64,000 nucleotides of DNA. It comes from Massospora cicadina (Eukaryota > Entomophthoromycota > Entomophthoromycetes > Entomophthorales > Entomophthoraceae). Positions within the stretch are counted from its first letter, which is position 1. Every line of letters begins with the position of its first letter. Made by a program: the position numbers and the translations under genes. The notes beneath the pieces are model-generated. The model saw only the letters and a program-made list of their open reading frames with translations. It had not been told where the DNA came from and did not search any database. The DNA lies in contig JAKSZP010008044.1 of assembly GCA_022478985.1 (NCBI GenBank), positions 1 through 64,000 on the forward strand, in the 5' to 3' direction. Of this stretch, positions 18,990-62,759 are shown in pieces.

Positions 18990-19203
18990 AATCATCCCCA
19001 TATTGAGAACAATTTATAAAAATTAAAATTATATTGGTTTTTTCTCTGCAGTTTATAATCCTTTTTTTCCATTAACTTTTATCAATTTTTTACTTTTATT
19101 ATTCTTTTTTCCATGGGACTTAACATTGTTTCAGTTCAGCAGTCCATCTTTTTATTTTTTCCTCAAACTGGGTCCTGGGTACTTAAACCTGCCAGTTTTC
19201 TAT

Positions 19204-19314
19204 GGTTCAGAGGTCCTTTTTTGGACTAACCATCTAGATTGGTTCAAAGATCCTTTTTTGGACTTAACCATCTAGATTGGTTCAGAGGTCCTTTTTTTGG
19301 ACTTGACCTAATCA
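19204..19314. repeat. Three tandem copies of a 37-38-bp repeat
   Basis: Units start at 19204, 19241 and 19279, each opening GGTTCA and containing a TCCTTTTTTGGAC core and CCATCTAGATT or a variant. They lie in B just beyond the end of its integrase, before the antisense open region. On B's coding strand each reads as a purine-rich segment, with AAAAAAGGA. Confidence 0.85.
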
Positions 19315-29578: not shown

Positions 29579-29902
29579 TGTTAGATTTTGATGGTTGACT
29601 CAAAAATAAACCCTTCAAGAAAACCATAAAAGCTGATATATTGCTCCCATTGATGGATCCTTTGATCCTTCCTGATTTATCTGCATAACTAGATTTATCC
29701 CAAAACCACCTCAAATGTACTTAAATCATCCCATTTATTGTAGCTAATAATAGCTATGATATAATTACTTTATGGCCAATTATGGGAACCACTTGGGTGA
29801 ACCAAATGAATATATGGCACAAACTTTATTGCAATTATGAATTTAATGCAAATATGATAAATTAATAATAATTTTATGTATGCCAATCACTGTAATTGGC
29901 AT

Positions 29903-30197
29903 GATAGTACTTACATATGGACTTCCCAATTAGGGTGTACCAAGTACTATCAAGAGGGCTACCAAAGTCCCATTTAAGGGTGCGTCTTTATTTGAATCCA
30001 TATATTCTTTTCCATCAATTGTTGTATTTTGTCAGCTGTATGATGAAATGATAGTACTTGCACATGGACGGCCCAAATAGGGAGTACCTAGTACTATTGA
30101 GAGGCCTACCAACGTCCCAATTAGGGGTGCATCATTATTCAAATTCATATATTCTTTTCCCCCACTTATTGTATTTCGTCAGCTGTATGATGAAATG
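29903..30197 (+). repeat. 147-bp tandem duplication in the D LTR
   Basis: Two diverged units, 29903-30049 and 30050 to about 30197, each open with GATAGTACTT and close with a TCAGCTGTATGATGAAATG block. Unit 1 carries a perfect 10-bp inverted repeat, GATAGTACTT/AAGTACTATC (29903-29912 and 29942-29951). Unit 2 has a shorter version (30050-30059 and 30089-30097). Both units recur in the 3' LTR at 37778 and 37925 with the same 147-bp offset. Being upstream of the TATA box, they are probably U3 regulatory elements. Confidence 0.85.
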
Positions 30198-30437
30198 TAA
30201 TCAGGCTGAATGAAAGGCAAATATACACCGCTGAGGTGCTAATATTATGCCTAAAATCTTCCTAATTATGAGAGTAGTAGTGCCTCCAATCAGGCTGAAA
30301 CAGTTGTGATTAAGTTAAACTAAGGGCTGAATTAACTTGGGGATATTTTAATAACCACTTTTATAATCCATAGCGGATTGGCATGGTTTTAATTAACTTA
30401 TCTAATAGATGAGTATGGCCAGGAGATGTCCTAGAGG

Positions 30438-30445
30438 TATAAAAT
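30438..30445 (+). promoter_or_regulatory. TATA box of element D LTR
   Basis: TATAAAAT inside the palindrome GGTATAAAATACC, followed about 20 bp later by AATAAA (30464-30469). Transcription probably starts around 30.46-30.48 kb, defining the U3/R border. Confidence 0.6.
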
Positions 30446-30788
30446 ACCGGCGCCTGGCCCTAAAATAAAAGCATCATCTTTCCATATCTTCATATTTTTG
30501 TCTTATATCTTCTTATCTTAATTTGATCTTCATATTAAGAGTGTAGACAAGAATTCAGGGGAGTTTGTCATAATTACCTGTGTATGGAGAGTTCCCAATT
30601 AGAGAGGAAAATTACCCTAGAAGAGACCAAGAGTATCAGATACTGTAATTTATCTTTGTGAGCTTCCAAACGGTTAGGAAATACCATAAGACACATAGCA
30701 TATTTGAGGATTTATTGGCCAAAACTCTTCCCAACTAGTGAAACAGGAATACATTTAATAAGCGAGATAATCCTCAAAAACTCACAAG

Positions 30789-30800
30789 TGGTGCTCACTT
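30789..30800 (+). other. Primer-binding site of element D
   Basis: TGGTGCTCACTT, two bases after the 5' LTR. It shares its first 11 bases with the site in A, B and G. Confidence 0.85.
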
Positions 30801-30806
30801 AAAACC

Positions 30807-31268
30807 ATGTTACACTTTGATATGAATAATTCATCTGAATACCAGGCAGGAGCTGCCAGAAGTTACTACGAAAATGACATGGAAACCAGTGATAGAGAAA
30901 TCACTGAGTACTTCAACACTGCACGCCAGAATACTGAGGAGAGAACTTCATACTCCTTGGATCTAATAACAGCGGGAGGAGGGCATGTGGACACAACTGG
31001 CCCTATTGAGTTTACCTCCAATAGTGTAAAAGAGATGATGGAGACCCTATTTCATGGGTATAAAATTGGTACATTAAAAATGGACCCATCTTTTGGGCTG
31101 TTTTACTACTTGAAGGATCAGGCCTTCAATATGGAGATGTATATGTGGTACCAAGAGGCGACCATGGCAACCTTGGCCAAATGCCTCAACTGTACACAAG
31201 CAACCAACGAGTTTTTGGTTAGCTTTGTACAGCCCTCAATCAAGCACACCCAAAAGATTCTGGCTTGA
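30807..31268 (+). pseudogene. gag: Element D gag N-terminal ORF
   Basis: A 153-codon open frame starting M-L-H-F-D-M, six bases after the primer site. It is rich in acidic, Thr and Met residues with no recognised domain. It is probably the amino-terminal part of Gag before the first disabling stop (TGA after K-I-L-A), because the following sequence continues as further gag-like segments. There is no hydrophobic signal or membrane segment. Confidence 0.6.
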
Positions 31269-32340
31269 CAGAATCTAGAGCTTGCGGAAATTTACATAAT
31301 ACAAGAGGAGGAGCGATCTTACCAATCAGGCTTACTGGATAAGCTGGTTCCAGTTCTAATGAAGTTAGAAAGGCTATCATGAATAATACAGAACAGGTGA
31401 ATGATTACCACAGAAGAGTGAACACCTTGAAAGATAACTCAATGAAAAAGTTCCAAAAATTGCAGCTGAGGTCCTCTCTTTACATGGACTGACCAGTGGG
31501 TGGGTCAATAATATCTCTAAATGCTGCCAGAAATTGGAGAATTACTCCAAATTCTTGTCATCTTGGACCAAATGTTTAACTAAAGATTCCACATTTGCTC
31601 GGAAAAGCCACTTGAAATTGAAAAACATGCATGTTCAACTTGATGAATATGTCCAAACTGAGTCGGGAATAATGCAAAAGAGCATCAAAGATCTGGCTGC
31701 CATGCCAGTAGGGCCAAATAACAGGGAAGAATTTGAGCAAATTCAGGAAGAACCTATGAAACTTCGGTCAACAATATCATCCATGCAAGCAAAAAAATCA
31801 AACTTACTAAAGAAAAACAAGATCTTCAAACACACCATCTAGTACTAAAAAAAATCTTCAAACACAGTTATCAGTAACTAATGACCGCGTTGCCAATCTG
31901 ACTGAAGATGTGAAGCATATACTGGCTTCTCAAATTATCTTTTGAAAAGAACGTGAAGAACTTAAAAAGGAAGTCAACGACCTAAAGGAGAGAAGTTGCA
32001 ACTGTTCAACTAGTCCTCAAGGGGGGGAGAGCAGTAAAACCTCTAAGTATTCGGACAGAACACAGCTGACTAAATTACACAAGACCTGAATTCAGGAGTC
32101 TGAATTGAGCAGTTTGGAGCAATTTCATGAAGCAGAATCCTCCAGAGTTGAGACGGATAACAAAACAGATATTTTGGACGTTTGCTCAATGCCAAAAAAT
32201 CTTGCTTCCATCCCAACTCTGGAGGACACTCATCACAAATGAACTTCAATTATGACTGAAGATTCCCCCAGACTTTTGAACTCTAGATGAAGCATAACTC
32301 CTCTGGCCAATTCTTGGCGCGATGACTTCAAACCCTTAAA
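31269..32340 (+). pseudogene. gag: Element D gag coiled-coil region
   Basis: A Lys/Glu/Leu-rich stretch whose best piece, 31534-31842, has 102 open codons with heptad-like Leu/Met spacing. It is comparable to the coiled-coil part of B's gag. The frame ends because of a 32-bp addition at 31835-31866 (a 19-bp insert plus target copy). Beyond it, T-S-P-Q-G-G-E-S-S-K and later segments continue with stops. Confidence 0.5.
31822..31866 (+). mobile_element. 19-bp micro-insertion with 13-bp target duplication
   Basis: ATCTTCAAACACA occurs at 31822-31834 and 31854-31866. Between them, 31835-31853 reads CCATCTAGTACTAAAAAAA. Removing the insert and one target copy restores a single uninterrupted target. 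The 3' end is the same as that of the 1.9-kb insertion ending at 42816. Confidence 0.85.
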
Positions 32341-33060
32341 TTTGCCAAAATTTGACAAAGAAGGAAATGTCCATTCATTCATAAAATTGTTTGAAAAGGC
32401 TATGCGAGGAGGATAAGATCATGCAAAGTCTACAGCTCTCAAAAATTGTCTGGACTCACATAGTGTCGATCTTGTTATGCCCTATTTGGGTGACAATTGG
32501 TCCTATTTGGATGCAAAAAAGGCCATCATAAGACAATTTGGAGGCCCTGATAAACTATCAGCCAGGAAGACAGACTTACTCAATAATGAATTTCATTGGA
32601 ATGAGTCTATCCAAGACTTTGCGGATAGATTTTTCCATGAGGCTCAGGTCTTACTCAGTTCAGGTGCCATAGACAAATTCGATGCAAAGGTTGAAATGCA
32701 GCATGCCATTAAGCCATACCAAGACTTGCAGCGTGTCATAATACCAGCCTTAAATTGGCTCAGGGGAGCGTTAGAACTTATGGAGTATCTAAGAAAATGT
32801 GCAAGTGGCTTTGACGCCCCTAATTGGCCTAAAGAAATCAAAATTTCAATTTTTAGGCCCAAAAAATACAAATTTGAATGAACATGGAAAAAACAATTGG
32901 TCCATAAATCCAAAAATGATCAGCAAACAGGGCTGATTACCTGTTGTAATTGTGGCTGAAAAGGACATTATTCTAGCCAATGCTACAGATGGCCTGATCT
33001 GAAACCTGGGGTTAATGTGGCCTTAAAGGTTAACGATGAAAAGCAGGTGGGAAAAGAACA
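32341..33060 (+). pseudogene. gag: Element D gag capsid and zinc knuckle
   Basis: The plus strand begins L-P-K-F-D-K-E-G-N-V-H-S-F-I (32.34 kb), then after one TAA has a 134-codon open piece at 32477-32881. This contains P-Y-L-G-D-N-W-S-Y-L-D-A-K, then F-H-W-N-E-S-I-Q-D-F-A-D and H-E-A-Q-V-L-L. At 32942-32983 is a CCHC knuckle, C-C-N-C-G-stop-K-G-H-Y-S-S-Q-C. All four ligands are kept, but there is a TGA (probably from CGA) in the middle. The protein would form the particle and bind RNA. Confidence 0.8.
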
Positions 33061-33133
33061 AGTGGAGTAGAAGCGGAATGCTCTACCTCCACCAATTCTT
33101 AACGCACATTCCACCTGACCCTGGCAAGCTTTT

Positions 33134-33850
33134 TTGGCTGACGAAGTGGCCAAAGATAGCTTACACCACATTGTGGCTGATAACATCTATATGGTTACCA
33201 CCCGGGCCAAAGCAAAAGAATTTAAGCAATCAGAGGGCACTGAAGAAGCTTGGACCGAAATAGCAAAGCCCTACACCAAGCATGTCATTGACCAAGGGCT
33301 GAGTAACCATCCTAAATGCTCAGCCAATATACCCACACTACAGGATGTGCAAGTGGCCATACCTATGAAGACTTTAGTAGAGAGTTTTCCAGAGATCTGC
33401 TCAAGTCTTTAGTCCCACTTGGAACCAAACACTTACTCCAATATTCATCTAATAAACGATTCTGATACCTACTCTGAATGTACTTATGTGGATATTGCAG
33501 CAAATAAAGTTTGAGTTTGGGCCATCATTGATAGTGGGACACCTATCAACATTGTCAGCACCAAATTGGTAAAGAATCTGAAAATTGCACCCAACGTTGC
33601 ACATTGTCAAGAATATGGTACAGCAGGAGCCCATAATACTAAGTCGCTTGGGGTTTATAGCACGTTACCATTATGGTTTGGATCCATTGCAGTGATGGCA
33701 CCAGACATAGTCTTGCTGAATACCAGCTACAATATTCTTGTTGGGACTGATTTCCTGAGAAGATTTGGTGTTGTCACGAATCATAAGGAGGATACGCTGA
33801 CTATTTTTGGGGCAAAGCATCCCAATCTATTATAACAATAATGGAAAGGC
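33134..33850 (+). pseudogene. Element D protease and linker
   Basis: A 92-codon linker piece (33134-33412) contains A-I-P-M-K-T-L-V-E-S-F-P-E-I. After a stop comes the protease: A-I-I-D-S-G-T-P-I-N-I-V with D-S-G at 33530-33538. Then S-T-K-L-V-K and the open frame 33566-33835 with S-T-L-P-L-W-F-G-S, A-P-D-I-V-L-L and L-V-G-T-D-F-L-R-R-F. The catalytic triad is intact; one TGA precedes it. Confidence 0.8.
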
Positions 33851-34327
33851 TGAAAAGAAACAGCTGAAGTTATTTTTTAACCTGGCTATAAGGATGGGAT
33901 ATTCCCAATTGAGTACACAAAATCCCATTCAAAGGTTAAGGCCCTTACGATGCAGATTTGAGAATCAAAGGGAATTCCATTATGATCAAATCATCAGACT
34001 ACCGTGCTACCTGGAACTCAAGTAGTTATTCTTACTGGACTGACTATTAAAATTCCAGAAGGACTATATGGGGAAATATATCAGCCAGGGTGTAGATCTT
34101 GATTGGAGCCAAATATCGCACTGGGGATAGTCATTCCAGGTCATGAGAAAATTCAAATCTTATGTGCAAACCTTTAGAATTGGCCCATCAAGATATGGAG
34201 ACATCAGGTTATTGCCTACCTACATCTATTTCCAAACACCAAAATTCAGACATTTCACAAGTTTGGAACCTTAAATGAGATAGGACTTCCTGATGATGAA
34301 ATCGTAATTATCAATAACGTTGTCCCT

Positions 34328-35480
34328 ATGGCTGAATTAAGGAACTTAACTGACATGGAAAAGTCTCAAGTCCAGAATTTATTTCAAAAATACCAGGAAA
34401 TATTTGAAAAAGATGATTTTGACTTAGGTTGTGCAAAAATTTTAATACACACAATTGACACAAATGACCATGACCCCATCTGGCTACGGCCAATTAGACA
34501 TTTGAAAGCAGCAGAAGAATTCGTTTTCAAAGAGATAAAAGAACTTCTAGCTCGTGGTTGGGACCATCTAGTACTAAAAAAAGAACTTCTAGCTCGTGGA
34601 ATGCTGGTCCCATCAAAGAGCCCTTGGGCTGCCCCAATTTTAATAGTAAAAAAGAAGGATGGGAGCATTTAGGTCATCATTGATTATCAAAAATTAAACA
34701 ACATCACCAAAAAGGATACTTATCCCCTCCCACGTATTGACAACGCCTTAGATCAACTTGGAAGCGCAAAGTTCTTTTCAGCTATAAACCTAATAAGCGG
34801 ATATTGGCATATCAATATGCCCAAAGAGGAGCGCGAAAAATGCGCCAACATAACTCAAGAGGGCCTATTCCATCCAACAAGGATGCCACAAGGACTTTGC
34901 AATGCCCCAGCTACGTTTCAAAGAGCGGTGGACATGATCCTTGAGAATTTAAAATTATCTTGTGTGTTGGTTTATTTGGACAATATAAATGTCTTTACCC
35001 GCACCTTCGCCAACCACCTGGAACATCTAGAAGCAGTTTTTAAGAGACTAGCGGCTGAAAATCTGAAAATCAAACCCTGGAAGTGCCAATTCTTCAAAGA
35101 CCAATTGGAATATCTTGGGTTTGTTATTAATAAGGAAGAACTCTAACCCCAGCCATCCATACTGGATGCAATATCAAAGATAAAATGCCCAAATCTAAGT
35201 GCAATATACAGGTTTTCCTGGGAATAATTGGTTATCATTGCCAATTCATTGCCAATTTTGCACAAATTGGAGAGCCATTGTTTCATCTGCTTAAGGACAA
35301 GGTCATATTTAACTGGAATCAGGCCTGTCAAGAGGCATTCAATCAGCTCCAATCATCCCTAATAACAGCCCCAGTCCTCCAATATCCTGATTTTGAGTGT
35401 GACTTTATCATCCAAACTGATGCATTGCTTACAGCAGTTGGAGCCGTTTTGTCTCAAAATAGGGGAGAATGGTGAGGAAC
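34328..35480 (+). pseudogene. Element D reverse transcriptase
   Basis: Open pieces 34328-34672, 34817-35146 and 35185-35475 cover RT from fingers to thumb: S-P-W-A-A-P-I-L-I-V-K-K-K-D-G-S, a TAG, V-I-I-D-Y-Q-K-L-N, F-S-A-I-N-L-I-S-G-Y-W (first catalytic Asp now Asn), T-R-M-P-Q-G-L-C-N-A-P-A-T-F-Q, and Y-L-D-N-I-N-V-F at 34973-34990 in place of Y-x-D-D. The thumb has F-K-D-Q-L-E-Y-L-G-F-V-I. A 42-bp in-frame addition in the fingers (34541-34582) duplicates K-E-L-L-A-R-G. The enzyme would be inactive. Confidence 0.9.
34541..34599 (+). mobile_element. 25-bp micro-insertion with 17-bp target duplication, in D's RT
   Basis: GAACTTCTAGCTCGTGG occurs at 34541-34557 and 34583-34599. The 25-bp insert between them (34558-34582) ends GACCATCTAGTACTAAAAAA. 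Insert plus one target copy is 42 bp, so the RT frame stays open with 14 extra codons. Elements A and B lack the addition at this position of the fingers. Confidence 0.9.
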
Positions 35481-35800
35481 ACCCAGTTGCCTTTGCTAGT
35501 CAGACCTTAAACGTCCACAAATGGAACTAAATGGTGACATAACAGGAATGTTTGGCGGTCATATATGCCTGCAAGCAATTTTGGGTTTATCTTCATGACA
35601 CTCACTTTACAGTTGTTACAGACCATTCATCCCTAAGATGGATGAACAATTTGAAGGAACCTAAGGGCTGATTAGCGCGGTGGGCGCTAAAAACTTCAAG
35701 CCTATAATTACACAATTAAACATTGTGCAGGAGTGAAGCACTAAAATGCCAACTGCCTAACCCGTTTATCTACAATCGCCATTGTCAGTTTGGCCACTGA
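35380..35800 (+). pseudogene. Element D RNase H remnant
   Basis: F-I-I-Q-T-D-A-L-L-T-A-V-G-A-V-L-S-Q carries the first RNase H Asp. After a frameshift and stops come E-H-P-V-A-F-A-S-Q-T-L, C-K-Q-F-W-V-Y-L, V-V-T-D-H-S-S-L-R-W and L-A-R-W-A-L. The landmarks run through 35.7 kb in mixed frames. Confidence 0.75.
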
Positions 35801-35949
35801 TGAGCTATTTCAAAAGATGGTCAGTGGAGAATTCCAGGATGAGCCTGAATCCATTCAAAAATTACTCATGGATCTATAGAAAAACACTTCGATTGAAAAT
35901 GGGGTACTGTAAAAATTAATTGAGGGAAAAAAGGTTATTTTTTCATGAC

Positions 35950-37010
35950 CCTCAGCCTGAAAAGACCTAATAATGGCAGCGCATAAGACCATAGGTCATG
36001 GTGGATTTAAGATGACAAAGGAACATCTTAAATTGTACTACTACTGGGAGTCAATGCACTTTGATATCCAGGAAACACTGGAGTGTTGTGCTGAATGCCA
36101 AGGCAAAAAACCGTTCCAAAAAAGCACATGTTACCAGCTTGTTTGGCCCAAGTTTGCTTGGCATACCATATCAATAGATGTTGTCAGACCACTTCCCACT
36201 AGCAACTATAAGGCCAAATACATCATTGTGGCTATTGACCACTTAACTAAGTGAGTTGAAGTCAAGGCGATTTGGGAAGTAGGTGCAACAACCACGGCTA
36301 AGTTTATCCTTGAGAATGTTATCCACAAGCATGGTTGCCCGCAGGTTACTCTGAATGATAAAGGAACTAATTTTATAGCCAACGTAATTACAAAGCTTAA
36401 CCAGCTGATGGGAGTAAAAGGTGTACTCTCTGTTTCCTACCATCCTGAGACAGATGGAACATTTGAGCGCGTAAATGGGACACTTGTGAATATTGTATGG
36501 AAGTTAACCTCAAACAAACCATCTGAATGGAGTACATTCCTAAGCTCGTCCATGTTTGCTTACAACATTTCGTATCACTTGGTCACAAAGTTGTCAACTT
36601 TCCAGGTCTTTTATGGAAGACATCCGGCCCTACCATCACTGCTTTATTCAGTCCTAGAAGATCCTGGTGAAAGCAGTCATCCTCAATACGTCAAGAAGCT
36701 TGCCAAAACCTTAATTAAGTTGCAAGCTCAAGCCTTAGACAACAGTTTTGCTGTTAAAGAGGCCCAACACGAAAAGGATTTAAAAGGTCAATAGAATTGG
36801 CCAAATTCAAAGTTGGTGAAGAGGTACTATTCTGTAACACACATGGATTAGGCAATTACAGAAGTTAAGTCGCATTTGGGTTGGCCAATTTATGATTATT
36901 GAGAAAATGTTGAGGTTTGTTTATACCATCAAAGAGGTTAAAAAAGGCCATATTTATAATTGAGTCCATGCAAAATTCCTAATGAAGTTTAGGAAAAGGG
37001 CAAAAATATG
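35950..37010 (+). pseudogene. Element D integrase, catalytic residues intact
   Basis: Amino end: H-x4-H in A-H-K-T-I-G-H-G-G and C-x2-C in C-C-A-E-C give the zinc-binding HHCC. Core: S-I-D-V-V (first Asp), then one TGA, L-N-D-K-G-T-N-F (second Asp), and exactly 35 residues later the Glu of F-E-R-V-N, a D,D-35-E triad. The frame 36408-36794 continues through F-A-Y-N-I-S and Y-G-R-H-P-A-L-P to a Lys/Gln-rich region. It then shifts into a carboxy-terminal domain ending near 36.98 kb. It is the least damaged catalytic domain in the window, though stops still break it. Confidence 0.88.
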
Positions 37011-37018
37011 ATTAAATA

Positions 37019-37050
37019 CATATATATATACATATGTATATATATACATA
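37019..37050. repeat. TA-rich microsatellite
   Basis: A TATATA/CATATG alternating run just after the integrase of D. No coding content is apparent from here to the polypurine tract at 37440. Confidence 0.8.
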
Positions 37051-37439
37051 GTTAAAAAGAGAAAAATAATATATATTACAAAAAATAAATGAATTGGTAA
37101 AATTAAGTGCTTAATTGAGGTTTTTATTCTTCCGCTTCAAGGGGGAGGTGCCTCAGTACCAGATTCCTCATTCCCATGTGCCAATTTGGCCCAATGTAGC
37201 TTCTGAATGAAAAAAACAGGGCCAAATAGATGTCATTAAAGTTGATAAAAAAATAAGATACTCCAACGGAGACTCTTAAAGTATTATTAAATACATACCC
37301 ATACAAAATGTTTGGCTCAACTAATTGAAATGAGACTTTATTTGGGATAAAGAGCAGCGATAAAATTACAATATGAAGAAGAGGCGTTGTTACCAAATAT
37401 TGAGGAGAAAATTGGGAAACTCAGGGTTTATATTACAAT

Positions 37440-37453
37440 CAATTGGGGGGAAA
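37440..37453 (+). other. Element D polypurine tract
   Basis: CAATTGGGGGGAAA ends one base before the 3' LTR start. Confidence 0.8.
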
Positions 37454-38660
37454 TATTAGATTTTAATGGTTTACTCAAAAATAAACCCTTCAAGAAAACC
37501 ATAAAAGCTGATATATTGCTCCCATTGATGGATCCTTTGATCCTTCCTGATTTATCTGCATAACTAGATTTATCCCAAAACCGCCTCAAATGTACTTAAA
37601 TCATCCCATTTATTGTAGCTAATAATAGCTATGATATAATTACTTTATGGCCAATTATGGGAACCACTTGGGTGAACCAAATGAATCTATGGCACAAACT
37701 TTATTGCAATTATGAATTTAATGCAAATATGATAAATTAATAATAATTTTATGTATGCCAATCACTGTAATTGGCATGATAGTACTTACATATGGACTTC
37801 CCAATTAGGGTGTACCAAGTACTATCAAGAGGGCTACCAACGTCCCATTTAAGGGTGCGTCTTTATTTGAATCCATATATTCTTTTCCATCAATTGTTGT
37901 ATTTTGTCAGCTGTATGATGAAATGATAGTACTTGCACATGGACGGCCCAAATAGGGAGTACCTAGTACTATTGAGAGGCCTACCAACGTCCCAATTAGG
38001 GGTGCATCATTATTCAAATTCATATATTCTTTTCCCCCACATATTGTATTTCGTCAGCTGTATGATGAAATGTAATCAAGCTGAATGAAAGGCAAATATA
38101 CACCGCTGAGGTGCTAATATTATGCCTAAAATCTTCCTAATTATGAGAGTAGTAGTGCCTCCAATTAGGCTGAAACAATTGTGATTAAGTTAAACTAAGG
38201 GCTGAATTAACTTGGGGATATTTTAATAACCACTTCCATAATCCATAGCGGATTGGCACGGTTTTAATTAACTTATCTAATAGATGAGTATGGCCAGGAG
38301 ATGTCCTAGAGGTATAAAATACTGGCGCCTGGCCCTAAAATAAAAGCATCATCTTTCCATATCTTCATATTTTTGTCTTATATCTTCTTATCTTAATTTG
38401 ATCTTCATATTAAGAGTATAGACAAGAATTCAGGGGAGTTTGTCATAATTACCTGTGTATGGAGAGTTCCCAATTAGAGAGGAAAATTACCCTAGAAGAG
38501 ACCAAGAGAATCAGATATTATTGTTTATCTTTGTGAGCTTCCAAACGGTTAGGAAATACCATAAGACACATAGCATATTCGAGGATTTATTGGCCAAAAC
38601 TCTTCCTAACTAGCAAAACAGGATACATTTAATAAGCGAGCTAATCCTCAAAGACTCACA
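37454..38660 (+). repeat. Element D 3' LTR
   Basis: 1207 bp. The terminal TG is mutated to TA, and it ends ACTCACA, followed by GACCT. It matches the 5' LTR with about 25 differences, several clustered near the 'cagatact/cagatatt' site at 38.51 kb. Confidence 0.95.
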
Positions 38661-39130
38661 GACCTACTTCGCACTTGCCTCACCTTAGTGCTGATACTCA
38701 TGTATTTGAATTTTGATAACACATTTTTTAATTCCAATAGACGTTTTACCCTTCTATAGGGGACATGAAATACCAGCTCACCAAGAAAGAAGTAGAGAAT
38801 CCCATAGCCTAATTCAGCCAGAATTTAGATGTGCACAAGCATAATTACACCGTGCCCAAGAGAGAATGTTTATCATTGATCTACGCATGCAATTAGTTTA
38901 GAGTCTAATTTCCTGGAGTGAATTTCAAGGTGGTAACTGTTCACTTATTCCTCAGATGGCTACAGAACCTTAAGGAGCTAGAAGGATGACTAGCCCATTG
39001 AGCGCTGAGGTTACAGGCGTACATCTTTGAGATTAAGCACCAGACCAGTGCAAACACCAGAACGCTGATAAGATGCCTTGGACCCCACCATTATGTTGAA
39101 TTACAGTATAGCAGATAACCTTTACAGCAA
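38661..39130 (+). pseudogene. Element C RNase H remnant
   Basis: C resumes after D. Y-F-S-Q-N-L-style wording (A-stop-F-S-Q-N-L-D-V-H-K-H-N-Y-T-V), K-R-E-C-L-S-L-I-Y-A-C, F-L-R-W-L-Q-N-L-K-E-L-E and A-L-R-L-Q-A-Y-I-F-E-I-K-H define the domain between 38.77 and 39.05 kb. Many Trp and Gln codons are now stops. Confidence 0.7.
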
Positions 39131-39239
39131 AATGATTATCCAAAAATACAATAACAAAATTGAAGAGGTATAATGCTTTCTGGATTGACTTATGAAAAAC
39201 ACCATTGTTAATAACGAAAAACTTTTAAGAACTATAGAA

Positions 39240-40340
39240 GGTTGCATATAACTTATACCACAACCAATCAAGCGTGAAGATCTGATCCTCAGGGCCACAA
39301 AGCCAGGAGACATAGGTAATTTAAAAAACGAGCAAACAACTGAAACAGCACTACCATTGGGATTTAATGCACTTTATTATCCATGAGGCTATTAGCTACT
39401 GCAAGGAGTTCCAAGCAGAAGTAAAGTACCACAAAAGCACTTCCTATCAATTGGTTAATCAAAACTTCACCTTATATATTATGTCAATTGACATTGTGGG
39501 ACTGTTAACCGCCAGTTGATAACATTTTCAAATACATTGTAGTGGCCATTGACCACTTAAAATTGATTTAGAGCAAAACAATCAGAGATCTGGGGGCTGT
39601 AACAACTGCCAAATCCAATTTAATGAATCTCATTTGTAAACACAGGTACTTCCAATTCTTTCTAACGAACAAAGGTACTAACTTCACATCCCAGTTGATT
39701 GCCAAGCTTAAAAAATTGTTGGGGGTTCACGGGGTCCTATTGATGCCCTATCACCCAAACTTAATGGTTTGGTGGAGCGGCCAACACTATTTTGGAATCC
39801 TACAAAAATTGACGTTGGGAAGACTGTCCAGTTGGAACCTCTTTCAACCTTCCACATATTTGCATATTATAGGAATTTCACTTGTCCATGAGAAGATTTT
39901 TTCAACTCCTGTATGGGAGACAGCCCACAAAGTCTACAATCCTATACTCCTGCATTTGTGGAGAGGGAATGACTCTAAGTTAATAATTACATATCCTCAA
40001 CAATGGGGACCACTTAGTGCTAAAAATATCCTCACCCATATGCTGGTCCAGCTCCAAACCAAGGCTTACTTTAAAGTGATGGACCAGAAGATGAGATGTA
40101 GGAGTGCAAATATTTGATTTCCACCATTTTCAATGCCTCAGCATAGGGGGTGGGTGATTTAACTACAATAACCATGGGTTTGACAAAACAAGTAAGCTTA
40201 AACACATCTGGAAGGTCCATTTGAGATTGTAGAGAAGGTTTCAACCAGTACATACACGCTCAAGGACACCATCAAAGGGCACGTCATCATTAGAGTATAC
40301 ACTAAATCCTTAAAGCAATTCCAGCAGGGCGCCAAATCGC
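39240..40340 (+). pseudogene. Element C integrase remnant
   Basis: The core begins M-S-I-D-I-V-G-L-L-T near 39.48 kb. The second motif F-L-T-N-K-G-T-N-F-T (39.66 kb) has Asn in place of Asp. In a shifted frame, L-N-G-L-V-E-R keeps the Glu near 39.77 kb. Carboxy-terminal wording V-Q-L-Q-T-K-A-Y lies at 40.05 kb. A 164-codon open frame at 39623-40117 covers much of it, but the catalytic site is lost. Confidence 0.7.
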
Positions 40341-40994
40341 CAATCACCACCAACCAATAGCGAAGCTGCCAGCTGTAGGCAATTAGTTAGTCCCCCTATG
40401 TTTGGGAAAGTAAGAGAAGTGTATTAAGTTTTGGGTTAAATCATACAACATTGGCTCCAGTAATAATACCCCAAATGACCTATATACCTCACAGCTACTC
40501 AGACCACCTTGACCCACTATCTGTGTCCATCAGAAGATTATTTTTATTGATCTGCCATCATATAATTCCGTTATTATTTTCTGGCCTAGAAACTTAGTAC
40601 CACAAACTAATTCTCCATATGACCCTAATTTTCATTAGACCATTTTACCATCAATTTGTTGAAAAAATCCAATGACTTAGACCAGATGCATTACCATCAG
40701 TCAAAAGATTGCCAGAACTACCCAGAAAAATTTTCCATAAACTTCCCAGCTGATTAATGTCCACAATACCCTAAAGAAGATGTACCTGATCTTTTTATCT
40801 TAATGACCACTATACCACTGTGAAGGCATCAAGGGCCTACTATTGGTTCAAAAATGGGAAACATAAAAGTTTTGTGGACCTAATAGAAGGCTGACACAAC
40901 ACTATCTATATTTCACTTTGATACTCAAATTGAAGCAAAATTCATATTTTTAAAAATTACAAAAACAACCAATCAATTGAGCCAAAACTTACCG

Positions 40995-41832
40995 ATGTCA
41001 ATGCAATCAATGCCTGCTGCCCCAGCTTGGGGTGGTGGTGCGCCATCATCTGACATCTTTTGGCCGCCGCTGAAGCGCGCCTGGGCTGGCTCTGATAGCC
41101 CTCCCAACGATACCAAGCGTTATGTCCCCCTCAGGACTTGGCCCACCACCTTGCAAGCTCTCAGGTGGTGCTCCAGAGCCCTTTGGTGCTCCCACGGAGC
41201 AATTTGCATTTTGGCCTCTGGGTTGAACATGGGAATCTTTTCCCATATGCAAGTGCGGCCATAATCAAGATGGCCATGGTGGTTTTCAAACCTGCCAGCT
41301 TTATCGACTTCCACCCCTATAAGGGGTGCTTCAACCTCAGCTTCCACTCAGAAGCCAATGCAGCAGCAGCAGTCAAGCTGCAATTGATTTACAAAAAAAT
41401 TCTGCTCCCCACCATTCACACCTGGCTCCTGGATGAGGCCACTTTGGCGGTCCAGTTCGCCAGGTTGCCCTCTTTTCTTTCCCCCAAACGCCTATGCCAT
41501 GAGCTTATGGAGGGTTTGGCCATTTATGGTGCAGACCTCATGTTGCAGTTTGTGGTTCCCAATGAGGCAGATCAGTTGGTAGGGCCTCACACCTTTACAA
41601 CAATCTGTCCATTTCATCGCAACTCTCACCTCATGATTCCCCCCTGCACTGTGATCAGATCCACCCCTGATCATCCATTCTGGGCGTGCATCAAAAATGA
41701 TGCACCATTTGCCCCTTGTGCTTCAAGCTTGACCACTCAAAGTGCAAGTGCCCTGCAGTTGCTGCTTCTGCTGCGTCTGCCACTCAGGGCTTGGGCGCCA
41801 CCCCAGCGGCTGCCTCACCCCAATTTTATTAA
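40995..41832 (+). pseudogene. Retroposon ORF1: RRM-like plus CCHC protein, two frameshifts
   Basis: Starts at ATG 40995 (M-S-M-Q-S-M-P-A-A-P) with a Pro/Ala/Ser-rich lead, shifts frame near 41.13 kb, and continues through a 200-residue middle region. This contains F-K-P-A-S-F-I-D-F-H-P-Y-K-G-C-F and A-V-Q-F-A-R-L-P-S-F-L-S-P-K-R-L, a pattern like the nucleic-acid-binding ORF1 domain of LINE elements. After a second shift near 41.70 kb, C-P-L-C-F-K-L-D-H-S-K-C-K-C (41710-41751) is a perfect CX2CX4HX4C knuckle, followed by an Ala-rich tail and TAA at 41830. It would coat the element RNA. A decayed homologue lies at 45.6-46.3 kb. Confidence 0.7.
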
Positions 41833-41959
41833 ATGGGGCTCAATCCTCCTGCCCCCAACATCAGGGAATTCTGGCGCTGCTTCAAAAGCAGCAGCCAATC
41901 AAAATTTAAATTTTTTTTAAAATTTTTGAAAATTCAATTGGATTATGGAATCCTAATTG

Positions 41960-42691
41960 ATGGCTGAACCAGATTCTGCTGAGCTGCCATGGTTGACAGC
42001 ACATGGACAATCAGCTCTGGCCACAGCCCCAATTCCTGTGGCTGGCCCAGTGCTGGCCAAATCCAATCCATTTGAGGCTCTTAAATGGATTGAGGAGGAT
42101 GGATGGCCGTGCCACGTGAAACCTGATTTTGCTTTGGAGGAGTTCTTTGTTGACCCTCCCAAATCACATTCACGCCATTTTCATCCAAAAAACAGGTTTC
42201 CCATTTATAAAAATATCAGCAATATGGCAGTTGTGGCTGCAGCTGCCCCGGCCAATACCCTCCTCCGCCAGCAACTCCATGGGGCAATGGAGCCCCTTAT
42301 CAAGGGTATTCCTATCCCCAATTTTCCTCATGATTTTGAGGAAGATGTGAAGTATAAAATTGAGGAGCTTGTTTTCAGTGCGAGCCATGCTTGCATTGAT
42401 GCAGCAAAAACTTCTCTTTTCAACCCCAATTATCCCAAGACCTGCTGGCGCATCAAGTCATTTACTTGTGTGCCAGCTCTTATCATTTTTGATGAGCATC
42501 AACTTTCTCAATACATTGAGGTGATAGACACCTCTGGCCTCATTAATGATGAAAACCCCCAACTATACCTCCTTATGCCCCATGTCGCTGATGCTCCCAC
42601 CCCAATGCTGTCCGCCATAGTCCGCCAGCTAAAGTGGGCGCCAGACAAAAGTTTCCCCAAAGCCTCCTCACCATCTGATATGGTTTCCTAG
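41960..42691 (+). CDS. Retroposon second ORF, unknown function
   Basis: An uninterrupted frame of 243 codons from ATG 41960 (M-A-E-P-D-S-A-E-L-P) to TAG at 42689. It begins 127 bp after ORF1. Features are an Ala/Pro-rich start, a W-I-E-E-D-G-W-P-C-H stretch, a central N-M-A-V-V-A-A-A-A-P segment and a carboxy half of mixed composition. I recognise no domain; there is no YxDD, no endonuclease motif and no Cys/His cluster. It could be the carboxy-terminal part of an ancestral ORF1, or a separate protein. Being fully open next to a frameshifted ORF1 is notable. Confidence 0.55.
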   Translation: MAEPDSAELPWLTAHGQSALATAPIPVAGPVLAKSNPFEALKWIEEDGWPCHVKPDFALEEFFVDPPKSHSRHFHPKNRFPIYKNISNMAVVAAAAPANTLLRQQLHGAMEPLIKGIPIPNFPHDFEEDVKYKIEELVFSASHACIDAAKTSLFNPNYPKTCWRIKSFTCVPALIIFDEHQLSQYIEVIDTSGLINDENPQLYLLMPHVADAPTPMLSAIVRQLKWAPDKSFPKASSPSDMVS

Positions 42692-43150
42692 GCTGATAAC
42701 CTAGGGGCTATATTAGAATTTTTTTAATTTATGATAATCCCTTTGTTTGGCCCATTTGTAAATAAAGATGCGTGGCAGCTCCCCCTTTTGGGTTGGCACC
42801 ACTAGTACTAAAAAAGAGAAGGCTGACACATGTTATTCGTTTCCAAAAACCCAGCTTATATATTGGAGAGGCCAAATTTTAGAAAGAAGAACACAACAAC
42901 AAATTTTTGGATACACTATTAATCAACCCATGACATCTTCAGAGGAACTCAGAGCTATAGTTCATGACAGATTTTTAACGCTAGAAATATCAAATAAGAT
43001 AAAAACAGAAACAAAAAATATACTCTCAATAAATCCTAACTTTAACCAACCTACATATAATTTTGAGGTATACTGTCTTCATAAAGCTATACCCAATTGA
43101 GTTTATATTTACCTGTGACAATTTTTTAAAGTTGTATTTCTGATTGCAAC

Positions 43151-45639
43151 ACTGAGTAAAAAACTGATGCAATTATTTCCTCCCATTTATCCCAGCGTCA
43201 AATTAGATATCTGGTATCATAGATAGCTATTGTTGTTTAGTTAATTGGACCTAATTGTTGAGTAATTTGAGAGGGACATTATAATATTAGTGTATGCCTT
43301 ATTTATTGTGGATTTTATCAAAGATATCAGTGATTATGGAGCAGGATTATCTAAGTATATGCAAAGCTTGGGATCCGCGGCCTAGCAATTCCACTTAATA
43401 ATTTTTAACTAGATAACATGGGCCTGGGGCTTTGTTGGTTAAGTTGGATATAATAATAATTGACTTAATGACCTAGACTCATGGGTTTTGTTGGTCTAAG
43501 TCATAATTAGTTTATAATGTTGATCAAGTATTTGATTAAATTAATTGCTAATTAGTAGTATGAATTTCCCTTGGTATGTGCTACCATTGCTTGAGAGAAA
43601 TGATGGTTTAGCTATTTTCAGACGCATCAGAAGAAACGCTGTTTTGAAACAATGGTCAGTTAAACAATGACAACAAGGCTGAGCTGAGTTACTGCAGAGC
43701 CTCATAGTTTGTAGACCCTTGGAAGCCTTCATTGGATCCACTTTCTAAATGCCAAAGAGGAACAAGGTGTCATGGGTGAGGTATGGATAACATCAAACCC
43801 TATAAATTATCCCTAATTTGGTACAAATAAAAACACTCTTTTAGCATAAAAATTTGATAGTTTTGTATACAAGCGTTTTGTATTTAATATTTTTCCAAAG
43901 TACAAAATTGAGAAATTACTTGATATCAGGAAGATCAGGGCAGTGAGCCATTATACAAGTAAACAACAGAAGAATACAGCCTTGAAGTGTCATTTTCAAG
44001 GATCTTATATCTTAAATACTGTCACTGTCTGGTCCATTGTCTCCATACAATAGGCGCTCAAAAATTCAATTTATTTCTGAAGAAAAACCAGCCCATCTGA
44101 AGTAGGCCAAAACTTTAACAGCTATGATGAGACAGAAAACAGCTGGATATCATCAAGGGATTGTGACACTGCTTTTGAACAATAGAATGTATAATTAGTT
44201 ATTAAAAATGTTTTATTGTCAAATATCTCCAAAAATATTAGTATTTCCCCTAACTCTCAACAGAATAAGTCAGACTAGAGTAATAATAAAACTACTAGAT
44301 TTCAGCTAAATAGCTTGATGTTAGTTTTATGGTTAATCCAATACCAGCAGAATAAGAAAGCTGACGTGGAAGTCAACCCACTCACAAACTTGAATTTAGT
44401 GTTACTTTAAAGGGAAAAAAATCCCTTTATAGACTAGAAGGAGGTTCCCAACAATTTAGTACTAAAAAAAAGGAGGTTCCCAACAGATAAAATATTTTAT
44501 CCACCAATTATCAACTAGGACATCCAGTAATCGTCCAAATTAAAAATCATTTAAAATGCCTGATTGGGTCAAATATTAAATCATTAACACATGGATTTGT
44601 CATACCTGCTGTTGAACCAACACCCAAAAAATAAAGCCCTATTGAGGTGAAATTTTTTGAGAATTATGATACACTAACTTTTATTTATCCAAATTGAGCT
44701 ACCCTCCACCTATCCAAATTCTCTAACTCCTATTGTTTTAGCTTTGGAGTACCATAACTACTGCAAGCATTATTTTAAAAAGATCTTTTATTCTCCACAA
44801 CTTGTACTAATAAAACTATTGAAATTTAGTTTATTTGTGGTCTATAGTTTCCATAAAATCTTACAAAGCTATCAAGGGTTTAGATACTCTTAAATATGTG
44901 AAATTGTTAAGATCCTGGTCCTAAGCACCTGTGAGAAACATATCATAAAGATACCAAAAAAGCCTCAAAGTTGATTTTTAAGCTTTATGAAAAGTTCCCT
45001 GATGGAGTAGACTAATTTACTTAACTCTTACCTTGCTGCCATAGGATTATGAATCCCCATAAGATTTTTTATTGGCTTTTGCACCTTCTGGTGGTGTAAA
45101 TACCTGTTCATTAGTGGAGGGTGATGTTACAGATAATGACATAACTTCAGGAATTACATCTTAAACCTAGTTTAAGAAGTATAAGGCAAAAGACCTAATA
45201 GAGAGAATTTGAAAACTAATGAGGATCTCTCCATGGCCATAGATAGGAAGTGGTTTGTGGCCCTAACCATTAAAAATACCAATAGTGTTCAATAAAATGG
45301 CCATAACAAGGATCCCCCTGATATGTTAAAAATAATAAAATATTATGTAATTAAGCTTGGCCAAATTTGTAAGGTTTATTTCATTGAAAATGCTATTTGT
45401 TAAATTTACATGGAGTTTAATAAATACTTCTGATTAAATTCACTTATATAGCTTAGATTTTAACAAAAAATGTTCACTATGTTATTCTATCTTATACATT
45501 TATAGGTCAACTTAGGTAAGATGATTTTATCTTTGTAAGAATTTGCCACTTTGAAATACTATTCTCTCTGAAAACCCACTTTTGAGAGACTTTTAAGCTC
45601 AAAAGTTTTAAAACTAAAATAAGCCAAAAAACATCTTTC
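43151..45639. other. A+T-rich DNA, no genes, one micro-insertion
   Basis: No coding domain or LTR pair was found. The only clear structure is the micro-insertion at 44439-44485. Long stop-rich A+T-rich stretches suggest very old repeat remains. Confidence 0.55.
44439..44485 (+). mobile_element. 17-bp micro-insertion with 15-bp target duplication
   Basis: AGGAGGTTCCCAACA occurs at 44439-44453 and 44471-44485, separated by ATTTAGTACTAAAAAAA (44454-44470). It has the same terminal motif as the inserts at 31.8 and 34.6 kb and as the 1.9-kb retroposon. Confidence 0.85.
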
Positions 45640-59900: not shown

Positions 59901-62759
59901 AAATATTGATTGGAGATGTTTCCATATGATAATTTTGTTAAGTATCATTATTGGGTTCAATTCTGATCTTAATGCTGATCAATTGCTTGTTGGGTGCAGT
60001 TGTCAAAAGATTTTATAAGGAAATTAGTTGTTGGCTGAATTCCAAACAATTAAATTCCCTATGTGGATTGATTATGCTGGGTCACCAATCCATAAGGGTG
60101 AAGATTTTATGAAGCGTTGATAATGCTTTTCATGGCAGTAACTTTTTAATTATCCTGAGCCATACGGACTCCCATGAATGGGCAAACTGTTTCATTACCT
60201 AGTAATGGCCACTAGCTTATAAACCAAAATTACAGGGGCTGTCTAAAGGCTTTGGAACACGTTATTTTGGAAGCCAGTACAGAAGGATCATAAACTATTC
60301 AGGAGTGACGCCTACTAGGTGTATGGATAAACAAAAGAATTATTAATTACTGGTATGATTATTAGAGTTAAATTCATTTGCAGGTAATGTTACTTAGCGA
60401 GGTGCTAAATAAATAGTTGAAAAAATTCTCTATTTAAGTCCTCTTACTATTTGAAAGTACATACTATAGAATTAAAAGATTTTATGATTTAGTTTCTTTG
60501 GAAGGTTTAAGGAATTACTTTATCATGTCTATTTCCCAATTTACTCAGTAAGAGGATACCTGAGTGAGTTGAGATCACTTGTAAAGTAGACTTGACACGC
60601 TAGTTTTATATATAAGACTAGCAATCTTTTTTATCATTACAATTAAGGCATGCCTGTGCAGTATATTTAAAGATTTCATAGGTTTGACTTGTCCATCCAG
60701 CAAAATGAACAACCATGACATTACCCTATTGTTCTCATTGGTCCTTGCCAGAATGAAATATGTGGTTATAAAATGACCTCAGGTGCACAGCCCCACAAAA
60801 GAAATACATCAAGGAGGCCTCTATTATGTGAAACTGACAATTTATGGGCTAAGGTTACCCTGACCCCTTGACCAACCCCTTGCTATCTCAAACTGACCAA
60901 CGTCAATTGTGGAATCTGCCATTTAGCGTGACTTGACCTTGAACATTTACTTTTTCTAAAGCTTGATGAAACTCCATTAAGTACATATTGTCAAAAATTT
61001 TTTCATTGCGCCTGATAATCTATTGGATCAATTTGTTTTGATCTGATGGCGCAGTAAGAAATTCCACCGACCTTTAGGTGTTCTATCACCATCAAGAATC
61101 AGTTTACTCATACTGGTGGTATTTAAATTTCCTTGATAAAAGGAACCCCATCTATAATCAATATAGTTTTTTAAGTTGCATTTTGCAGAACCATTTTACT
61201 TAATATAAATTTTTCATCAATCCAAAAACAGTTTGACTTTTTTCAGCGTTGCCAAGCCCTTTCAGCTTTAGGTCAATGTAAAAATTTTGGTTTGTTACGC
61301 TTGTTGCCAGAAAAGATGTCAAGGGCAATAAGGGAATTGGGCTGTTTAGATCATGTTGACAACTTAAGATGTAAATTGCTAGTATCTATATTATACATTA
61401 ACTAATTGATTTAAGTTAATGCTCTTGATTGATATCTCGCTGCAGTGTTAGTGTCAACTTAATTATTAATTCAAACCAATTAACCTTGACCCTGCACTAT
61501 CATATAATTGTACCATTAATTAATTACTATCTACATCTTTTCTGAAATAAAGTAAACTTGTCATATATTTTGTCTCTAAACAACTGATCATTATCTGCCT
61601 TTATCTCATTTGTTACCAGCTAAATACAAGTTTAAATGTATGTCAAATGCACCTAATATAAAACATATTTTACTTTTTAATTTAATATGAAAAAGATAAG
61701 AATCCAAGGCATTTTCACCAATAGTGCTAAAAAATAATCCAAGACGCTGCTATTTGCCATGCACTTGCACCATTGAACTATAAAACCCAGAGCGTATTTA
61801 TGAAAAAAAATAAACGATTGAATTATTAATTATCTTTTGTAGTTTTTACAAGACAAATAGGATAGCAAAAACCATAGACGCTGCTAGTACAGATATTATA
61901 GTGTTTTAAAGACTATTACCTATATTAAGGCACTTAAAAACCAAGTTTGTATCTCACCTGTTTAAAGAAATATCTTATCTTCCTAAATTATACTGAAGCT
62001 TGGTGCACTAGAAATGTGAAATATTAGCATTTTTATTCACCTAGCGCCGTTTGCAACATTTGATATATACTAAAGGGTTGCTTTTCAACCAAGTAATATT
62101 CTAAATCATAAAGTCTAAAGAAGATCGCCGCTCAACTAGCAAACCAATTTTTAATTTGAGAGTCATCAGATTGTCACCTTGTCCAGATTGCATATGTTCT
62201 GGTAGAAAATAAATGATGAATATAAAGGCTAGCACAAGAGTTAGAAACCAGCCCATTGAGGCTCAATGATCTAAAAGAGATATGGACAAAACTTTGATTC
62301 AATAGAGAACTATATGGAGACTAAAGCTTTTTATAGAAATAATTAGTTTTAAGGTCAAAAGATAGAAGATTTGACAAAAGAAATACATGATTTGAAGTTT
62401 TACCTTTTTAAGTTAACTACAAGCTTATGGAGATTAGTAACTGTTTAAGGAGGTAGACCATTTTTTTCTTCCTGATTGATCATTTTTCCAAATTAGAACC
62501 TAATCATGACAAAGCGCTGACCCATAGGATGCCTGTTATTTTTTATCATTATTCACTTCAGATTATTCAGCCCATACAAGCTGTTAAGCGGCTCTATACA
62601 GCGCTAGAGACCTAAAATTTTACTGCCCTGGTGACTTCAACTCATTCTGATTCCACAAAAAAACTTTAATTTAAAAAACCAAAAAGTGTCGCATAGCTCC
62701 AACTAAGAAAGTGAGATTAACATTCACTATTATGTCAATACAACTAACCTGCCTAAATT
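56955..62759. other. A+T-rich DNA without recognised genes
   Basis: No LTR pair, domain or RNA gene was recognised. Two short open stretches, a 54-codon one near 58.16-58.33 kb and a Cys-rich one near 60.73-60.93 kb, have no homology I can name. A possible micro-insertion lies at 61701-61743. Confidence 0.6.
61701..61743 (+). mobile_element. Possible micro-insertion
   Basis: AATCCAAG at 61701-61708 and 61736-61743 flanks about 27 bp ending CACCAATAGTGCTAAAAAAT. The end resembles the CTAGTACTAAAAA terminus with two changes, and the duplication is only 8 bp, so this is weaker than the three clear cases. Confidence 0.5.

What the first reader, a model, noticed from the sequence alone, without database searches (positions are those of the whole stretch)
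31822..44485. A family of 17-25-bp micro-insertions with long target duplications and one shared 3' end
Three sites (31835-31853, 34558-34582, 44454-44470) each contain a tiny insert flanked by perfect direct repeats of 13, 17 and 15 bp. All three end in YTAGTACTAAAAA(AA), and TAGTACTA is itself a perfect palindrome. A 1.9-kb insertion at 40899-42816 has the same end and a 14-bp duplication. Variable-length target duplications, constant 3' end and A-tail are the signature of target-primed reverse transcription, but products of about 20 nt are extraordinarily short. All are in the same orientation. It looks like a non-LTR machinery that starts reverse transcription on a fixed 3' terminus and usually aborts, scattering tags through the genome.
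Basis: partly seen in the sequence, partly recalled or inferred. Interest (0 to 1): 0.92.

Follow-up and report, generated by a model that had tools for sequence, protein, structure and literature searches.

The report
Twenty-base scars of stalled LINE insertion
A giant 1.47-billion-base genome, probably that of the cicada fungus Massospora, carries about 40,000 copies of one mobile-element end, most of those examined being scars of only about 20 bases between duplicated target sites, which are likely the remains of LINE insertions whose copying into DNA stopped almost as soon as it began.

Summary
The 1.47-Gb genome holds 41,342 exact TAGTACTAAAAA, the reversed control 1,002. Of 61 distinct hits read with flanks, 45 are inserts of 11-49 nt between duplications of 13-25 nt (as scored); controls: 4 of 109 shuffled-motif hits (three of them one site) and 0 of 305 swapped flanks. 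Nineteen of the 45 have a gap-free empty paralogue, one 99.7% identical. A resident LINE with endonuclease and reverse transcriptase has the same 3' end; 41 of 45 duplications begin AA. Tag 5' ends lie 1-22 or 29-35 nt upstream of TAGTACTA. Genome-wide, 61% of copies that reach the 5' foot of a predicted 3' hairpin lack the next three LINE bases, whereas of 40 listed copies that have them 25 also have LINE sequence some 180-300 nt further up. Best reading: target-primed reverse transcription that mostly aborts within the terminal ~45 nt, with a sharp stop at the hairpin foot. That the hairpin causes the stop is inferred, and a discrete small template RNA is a live rival. New variant of a known kind; no report of it was seen in the paper searches made.

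The parts
31822..31834 (+). left target-site duplication of tag 1 (ATCTTCAAACACA)
31835..31853 (+). tag 1: 19-nt insert CCATCTAGTACTAAAAAAA, inside a Ty3 LTR element
31854..31866 (+). right target-site duplication of tag 1
34537..34557 (+). left target-site duplication of tag 2 (21 nt including A's shared with the tail)
34558..34578 (+). tag 2: TTGGGACCATCTAGTACTAAA plus A's shared with the duplication; net addition 42 bp, in frame, just upstream of the reverse-transcriptase frame of the Ty3 element
   Evidence: empty paralogues in L069, L052 and L054 at 62-64% identity, three counted gap-free
34579..34599 (+). right target-site duplication of tag 2
44438..44453 (+). left target-site duplication of tag 3 (AAGGAGGTTCCCAACA)
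44454..44469 (+). tag 3: ATTTAGTACTAAAAAA
44470..44485 (+). right target-site duplication of tag 3
39991..40034 (+). probable older tag: ATATCCTCA / insert ending GGGACCACTTAGTGCTAAAA / ATATCCTCA
   Evidence: score 9; 15 of 1,071 A-run sites reach that
61698..61743 (+). possible older tag: AAGAATCCAAG / insert ending CACCAATAGTGCTAAAA / AATAATCCAAG
   Evidence: score 8, weak; 44 of 1,071 A-run sites reach that
40885..40898 (+). left target-site duplication of the 1.9-kb element (AGAAGGCTGACACA)
40899..42816 (+). 1.9-kb element of another family without a recognisable reverse transcriptase, with a CCHC-type stretch (read by eye) and a 244-aa frame, sharing the 3' end GGGTTGGCACCACTAGTACTAAAAAA
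   Evidence: relatives in L031 and L063
42817..42830 (+). right target-site duplication of the 1.9-kb element
29581..38660 (+). Ty3/gypsy LTR element (LTRs 29581-30786 and 37456-38660, 97.8% identical) that is the target of tags 1 and 2

Best explanation
The tags are 11-49-nt copies of the 3' end of a LINE retrotransposon flanked by 13-25-nt target-site duplications, likely made when the LINE's enzyme nicks an A-rich site, starts target-primed reverse transcription at the fixed terminus UAGUACUAAAAA and stops within the terminal ~45 nt. Shown here: the duplications, the shared end, empty sites, the AA-start target bias, a LINE with the same end plus endonuclease and RT domains, and the two zones of stopping. 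Inferred: that the products are resolved abortive reactions; that a 3'-terminal RNA hairpin (GAUG...CAUC stem next to UAGUACUA) holds the enzyme, giving stops inside its 3' arm and loop and a sharp one at its 5' foot; and that an enzyme which gets past this point becomes processive, much as RNA polymerase leaves abortive initiation.
For: Genome count 41,342 against 1,002 control. 45 of 61 hits are short inserts with duplications; controls 4 of 109 and 0 of 305. Motif-free scan of the window and 20 stretches: 18 of 19 structures carry TAGTACTA and the 19th is TACTAAAAAAA, 11 nt; five rounds of order-3 Markov resampling gave 1 structure in all, and a T-tail version of the scan gave 1. Empty sites for 19 of 45 tags, best 99.7% identity. 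Duplications begin AA in 41 of 45. A LINE copy at C1, read from L042 and L072, has a CCHC ORF1, Exo_endo_phos (3.9e-9), RVT_1 (5.7e-29) and the same 3' end. Exact-string counts by distance upstream of TAGTACTA: 0 nt 41,342; 9 nt 18,943; 14 nt 10,168; ~33 nt 6,799; ~36 nt 2,654; ~44 nt 1,989; ~297 nt 2,784; the last four strings do not include TAGTACTA itself. Of 99 listed hairpin-length copies, the 59 that lack the next AAA have no interior LINE string within 450 nt upstream (0 of 59), while 25 of the 40 that have it do.
Against: The hairpin's predicted energy is no better than that of shuffles (-8.9 kcal/mol, z -0.04). The exchange of GAUG/CAUC for GUGG/CCAC between families was seen by eye in few sequences, and MAFFT did not align the arms. 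The sharp 5' boundary would also fit a discrete short template RNA. No tag among the 45 clearly shows the other family's end (CACCAC), which a purely enzyme-driven stop would not predict, though only three or four copies of that family were seen. Of the 61 hits 16 did not pass the repeat test; one of them (L055) has an A/T-rich 10-nt repeat 123 nt upstream that could be a mid-length insert. Microhomology at the 5' junction is no more common than chance: 11 of 45, against 23% expected.
Confidence: 0.72

Rival explanations
1. The template is a separate small RNA of about 45-50 nt (a processed 3' fragment of the LINE RNA, or a minimal SINE-like transcript) that the LINE enzyme copies in trans. 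The 29-35-nt class would be its full-length copy and the shorter tags its truncations.
For: The 5' boundary at ACATCG is sharp: 6,799 copies fall to 2,654 over 3 nt and then stay roughly level (1,989 at ~44 nt, 2,784 at ~297 nt). An AATAAA lies immediately upstream.
Against: No such RNA was looked for in expression data (none was on hand). Most tags stop earlier, inside the hairpin, which still requires early termination (33 of 45 at 16 nt or less).
Confidence: 0.3
2. Ordinary 5' truncation: these are simply the shortest members of a continuous LINE length distribution.
For: 5'-truncated copies are the rule for LINEs; human L1 insertions have medians of 394 bp (somatic) and 1,240 bp (germline) (passages of PMC12016303). 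One sampled hit has a weak mid-length candidate (L055, 123 nt).
Against: No convincing insert between 36 nt and several hundred nt was found in the 61 hits, and genome counts stay roughly level from ~36 to ~297 nt after a fifteen-fold fall over the first 36 nt.
Confidence: 0.12
3. Assembly or sequencing artefact, such as an adapter or a consensus error of a nanopore assembly.
For: The probable source assembly is nanopore-based with short-read polishing (PMC9584336).
Against: The tag sequence continues into LINE copies with coding regions. Target sites show a base preference. One tag is shared by two copies of a duplicated segment while a neighbouring tag is absent from one of them (L022, L023 and L024).
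Confidence: 0.03
4. Repair-templated filler at breaks without reverse transcription in place.
For: 11 of 45 junctions show 1-4 nt of microhomology and others hold extra or diverged bases, but the microhomology is at the chance level.
Against: Constant 3' end, A tail, 13-25-nt duplications and A-rich site choice are not expected of filler DNA; 0 of 305 swapped flanks mimic them at the threshold used.
Confidence: 0.03

Closest known systems
Human LINE-1 5'-truncated insertions and abortive retrotransposition
   Same: Target-site duplications, A tail, A-rich endonuclease site, truncation at the 5' side
   Different: L1 insertions are hundreds of nt long (medians 394 and 1,240 bp, passages of PMC12016303); here the median insert is 21 nt and there is a step at a fixed place in the template
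Stringent-type LINEs with a 3' stem-loop recognised by their RT (recalled; the abstract start of PMC5135761 in the listing mentions them)
   Same: Conserved 3' terminus shared between an autonomous and another element, and a possible terminal hairpin
   Different: In those, as far as recalled, the hairpin promotes full retrotransposition; here most products end inside it or at its foot
L1/Tx1-type LINEs of early-diverging fungi (nearest named proteins include Zancudomyces TX1, Rhizopus, Mucor, Lichtheimia)
   Same: Endonuclease and reverse transcriptase, zf-RVT-like region; ORF1 with CCHC knuckle here
   Different: About 28-42% identity in the RT among those named hits; whether they make micro-insertions was not examined
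L1 LINE expansion of Massospora cicadina (PMC11105155, passages)
   Same: Probably the same genome; L1 LINEs make up 6.3% of it and expanded after the Ty3 elements
   Different: The passages seen describe repeat fractions and ages, not 20-nt tags

Membership tests
LINE (non-LTR) insertions made by target-primed reverse transcription | Target-site duplications of variable length | tested here: met
   45 of 61 hits; 13-25 nt as scored; controls 4 of 109 and 0 of 305
LINE (non-LTR) insertions made by target-primed reverse transcription | Constant 3' end with A tail, variable 5' end | tested here: met
LINE (non-LTR) insertions made by target-primed reverse transcription | Empty target site with one copy of the duplication | tested here: met
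   19 of 45 sites have a gap-free empty paralogue in the sample; L022 against L024 at 99.7%
LINE (non-LTR) insertions made by target-primed reverse transcription | A-rich endonuclease site at the first nick | tested here: met
   Duplications begin AA in 41 of 45; tail and target A's overlap, which inflates this
LINE (non-LTR) insertions made by target-primed reverse transcription | Resident element with endonuclease and reverse transcriptase and the same 3' end | tested here: met
   L042 + L072, frames broken in the copy read
L1/Tx1 clade | Apurinic-type endonuclease plus RT | tested here: met
   PF03372 3.9e-9, PF00078 5.7e-29
L1/Tx1 clade | zf-RVT zinc region after the RT | tested here: inconclusive
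   PF13966 E 2.5e-5, 25.3 bits, below the curated cut-off of 27.5
L1/Tx1 clade | Position in an RT tree | not tested
   Only a homologue list was made
Stringent-type LINE with functional 3' hairpin | Stable, conserved terminal stem-loop | tested here: inconclusive
   A stem is predicted but z is -0.04; no covariation count was made because MAFFT did not align the arms
SINE | Own RNA polymerase III promoter or small-RNA head | tested here: not met
   The 45 inserts of 11-49 nt hold LINE 3' end, tail and at most a few extra bases

The most novel reading that the evidence does not exclude
Target-primed reverse transcription has an abortive-initiation phase and an escape step, set by a structure at the 3' end of the template. 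In this genome the failed starts are sealed into the chromosome instead of being erased, leaving tens of thousands of 20-nt records that outnumber long insertions several-fold, perhaps more than tenfold.
Probability: 0.5. Interest if true: 0.92.

Novelty: new variant of a known kind. Interest (0 to 1): 0.82.

Why it matters
How often LINE insertion starts and fails is normally invisible, because failed starts leave nothing or very short products that repeat finders would pass over. Here one can read where the enzyme stopped, copy by copy, at what is likely tens of thousands of sites, which makes the early steps of target-primed reverse transcription (site choice, start, escape, second-strand joining) measurable from sequence. 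It also shows a mutation class, a 27-67-bp net addition that can be in frame, and raises the question whether other LINE-rich genomes hide the same scars.

Tried and rejected
Motif hits in viral contigs: 20 loci at exact motif sites, no flanking duplications seen by eye (not scored by script); chance hits, a loose negative only. Protein homologues of the 1.9-kb element's 244-aa frame: none at E 0.001 (that search reaches only relatives sharing short exact words). Rfam at gathering threshold: nothing in the window. Mitochondrial COX1 for naming the organism gave one 56-position match and was not pursued; an Hsp70 search did not complete. The organism is inferred from the length of contig 1 (1,107,499; longest scaffold 1,107 kb in PMC9584336) and the genome size (1.47 against 1.488 Gb); the contig number differs (16,968 against 19,694), and GC is 38-39% in window and sample against 41.13% published. 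A branch-point reading (TACTAA) and a tRNA CCA-end reading of CCATC were thought of and dropped: nothing beyond the letters supports them, and neither was tested. A count at about 1.3 kb upstream did not complete, nor one for the CACCAC end.

Papers: PMC9584336, part 1 of 3 of the text, which holds the announcement and its table; PMC11105155, PMC12016303, PMC2912911 and PMC13295347 as passages only; all others as search listings with abstract beginnings. Ten paper searches were answered. Of these, 58 and 75 were about the organism, 28 returned no paper, 81 was too broad to be useful (106,584 papers), and for the longer ones only the top of the list was seen.
Full report
What was checked. In the window all six exact TAGTRCTAAAAA sites lie on the + strand; four have clear duplications, and two (40015 and 61722, with G in place of A) have weaker ones of 9 nt and 10 of 11 nt. 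Against 1,071 A-run sites of the same window, 15 reach a repeat score of 9 or more and 44 reach 8.

Genome scale. The window lies in a 1.47-Gb assembly of 16,968 contigs. TAGTACTAAAAA occurs 20,620 + 20,722 times; the reversed pattern 477 + 525 times. I read flanks for 61 distinct hits: 30 search loci, 20 stretches of 10 kb chosen because they hold a hit, and the window. The sample is therefore not random and comes mostly from contigs 1-3, but contig 1 (1.1 Mb) was covered for all 28 of its hits: 19 distinct tags pass the script, one hit is a duplicated copy of one of them, five are long LINE copies, one is the other family, one is a tag with a mutated duplication by eye (L039) and one is unresolved (L025). 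By script, 45 of all 61 have an insert ending at the motif between direct repeats with a score of 11 or more. The 16 others are five long LINE copies, three or four copies of the other family, three that look like tags by eye with a mutated or gapped duplication (L039, L056, L060), and four or five unresolved or chance hits. Controls: 4 of 109 hits of 419 shuffled motifs (7 at a score of 9), three of those four being one site, and 0 of 305 swapped flanks (3 at a score of 9). One-letter variants of TAGTACTA before AAAA gave 11 hits in the same sequence, one of them with a repeat, which suggests a young family, though the sample was picked by the exact motif.

Without the motif. A scan that asks only for a duplication of 12 nt or more, an A run and an insert of 8-80 nt or so found 19 structures in the window and the 20 stretches. 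Eighteen carry TAGTACTA; the nineteenth is TACTAAAAAAA, 11 nt, with a 16-nt duplication, that is, the same end cut inside the palindrome. The stretches were chosen for the motif, so 18 of 19 overstates its share; the three window cases are free of that choice. Five rounds of resampled sequence gave 1 structure in all, and asking for a T run in place of the A run gave 1.

Empty sites. With the insert and one duplication left out, 19 of 45 sites match a paralogue in the sample without a gap at the junction (at 60% identity or more). The best, L022 against L024, is 99.7% identical over 316 nt, so that insertion looks recent. In the window, tag 2 adds 42 bp in frame to a Ty3 reading frame, and relatives at 62-64% identity lack it.

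Source. Long copies with the same end encode a LINE: ORF1 with a CX2CX4HX4C knuckle (read by eye), endonuclease (PF03372, 3.9e-9), reverse transcriptase (PF00078, 5.7e-29) and a zf-RVT-like region just under its cut-off. Its frames are broken in the copy read. Named proteins near it are from Zancudomyces (named TX1), Rhizopus, Mucor and Lichtheimia. The 1.9-kb element of the window has a CCHC-type stretch by eye, no RT found, and the related end GGGTTGGCACCACTAGTACTAAAAAA; L031 and L063 hold relatives.

Target site. The first base of the duplication is A in 44 of 45, the second in 42, both in 41; the base before it is almost never A (1 of 45) and the one before that is A or T in 41. Part of this follows from how the boundary is drawn, since tail A's and target A's cannot be told apart.

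Where copying stops. Upstream of TAGTACTA the 45 tags hold 16 nt or less in 33, 20-22 nt in 3 and 29-35 nt in 9; the median insert is 21 nt. Some of these lengths include a few extra bases that do not match the LINE, and microhomology at the 5' junction (11 of 45) is at the chance level of 23%. Exact-string counts give the same picture: 41,342 at 0 nt, 18,943 at 9, 10,168 at 14, 6,799 at about 33, 2,654 at about 36, 1,989 at about 44 and 2,784 at about 297. Longer strings lose diverged copies, so the counts are lower bounds: two of the five long copies on contig 1 lack the exact hairpin string. Such loss can hardly make the step from 6,799 to 2,654 over three bases: of 99 listed hairpin-length copies, 40 have the next AAA; 25 of these 40 have the interior LINE string within 450 nt upstream, and 0 of the other 59 do.

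Mechanism. I take these as resolved, abortive target-primed reverse transcription. The end of the template can fold as GAUG-AA-UCCC ... GGGA-C-CAUC directly before UAGUACUA; tags stop inside its 3' arm or loop, or just past its 5' foot. In the other family a stem GUGG...CCAC can form at the same place, a two-pair exchange seen by eye. Against the hairpin: its energy equals that of shuffles, and the arms did not align. A discrete 45-50-nt template RNA remains a real rival for the class at the foot.

Organism. Contig 1 is 1,107,499 nt long, which fits the longest scaffold (1,107 kb) of the Massospora cicadina MCPNR19 assembly of 1.488 Gb (PMC9584336); contig number and GC differ somewhat. A passage of PMC11105155 says that this species is unusual among its relatives in carrying 6.3% L1 LINEs, expanded after the Ty3 elements. 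This naming is an inference.

Novelty. Truncated and abortive LINE insertion is known (for example PMC2912911, passages). A class of ~20-nt products that dominates a family, with a fixed stop, I did not see in the listings of the searches that bore on it; for the longer ones only the top of the list was seen, and the library lacks most subscription papers.

Noticed in passing
window 29581-38660: A Ty3/gypsy LTR element (LTRs 97.8% identical) whose LTRs hold an internal 147-bp tandem duplication of about 75% identity.
   Followed up: partly
window 41957-42691: An open 244-aa frame in the 1.9-kb element with no Pfam family above its cut-off and no homologue found at E 0.001.
   Followed up: partly
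window 19203-19302: A 37-38-bp tandem repeat that contains ACCATCTAGA, a partial look-alike of the tag end; probably chance.
   Followed up: no
window 45233-45305: A 9-nt repeat ATGGCCATA flanks a stretch ending ACCAATAGTGTTCAATAAA, possibly an old relative of the tags.
   Followed up: no
L066 and L022: Related repeats carry several tags at different places (L066 two, L022 two), so tags could help to date copies of the host repeats.
   Followed up: no
LINE 3' end, e.g. L032 upstream of its motif: An AATAAA lies directly upstream of the sharp stop (AATAAA|CATCG), and one also precedes the hairpin in the 1.9-kb family; whether it is a processing signal is unknown.
   Followed up: no
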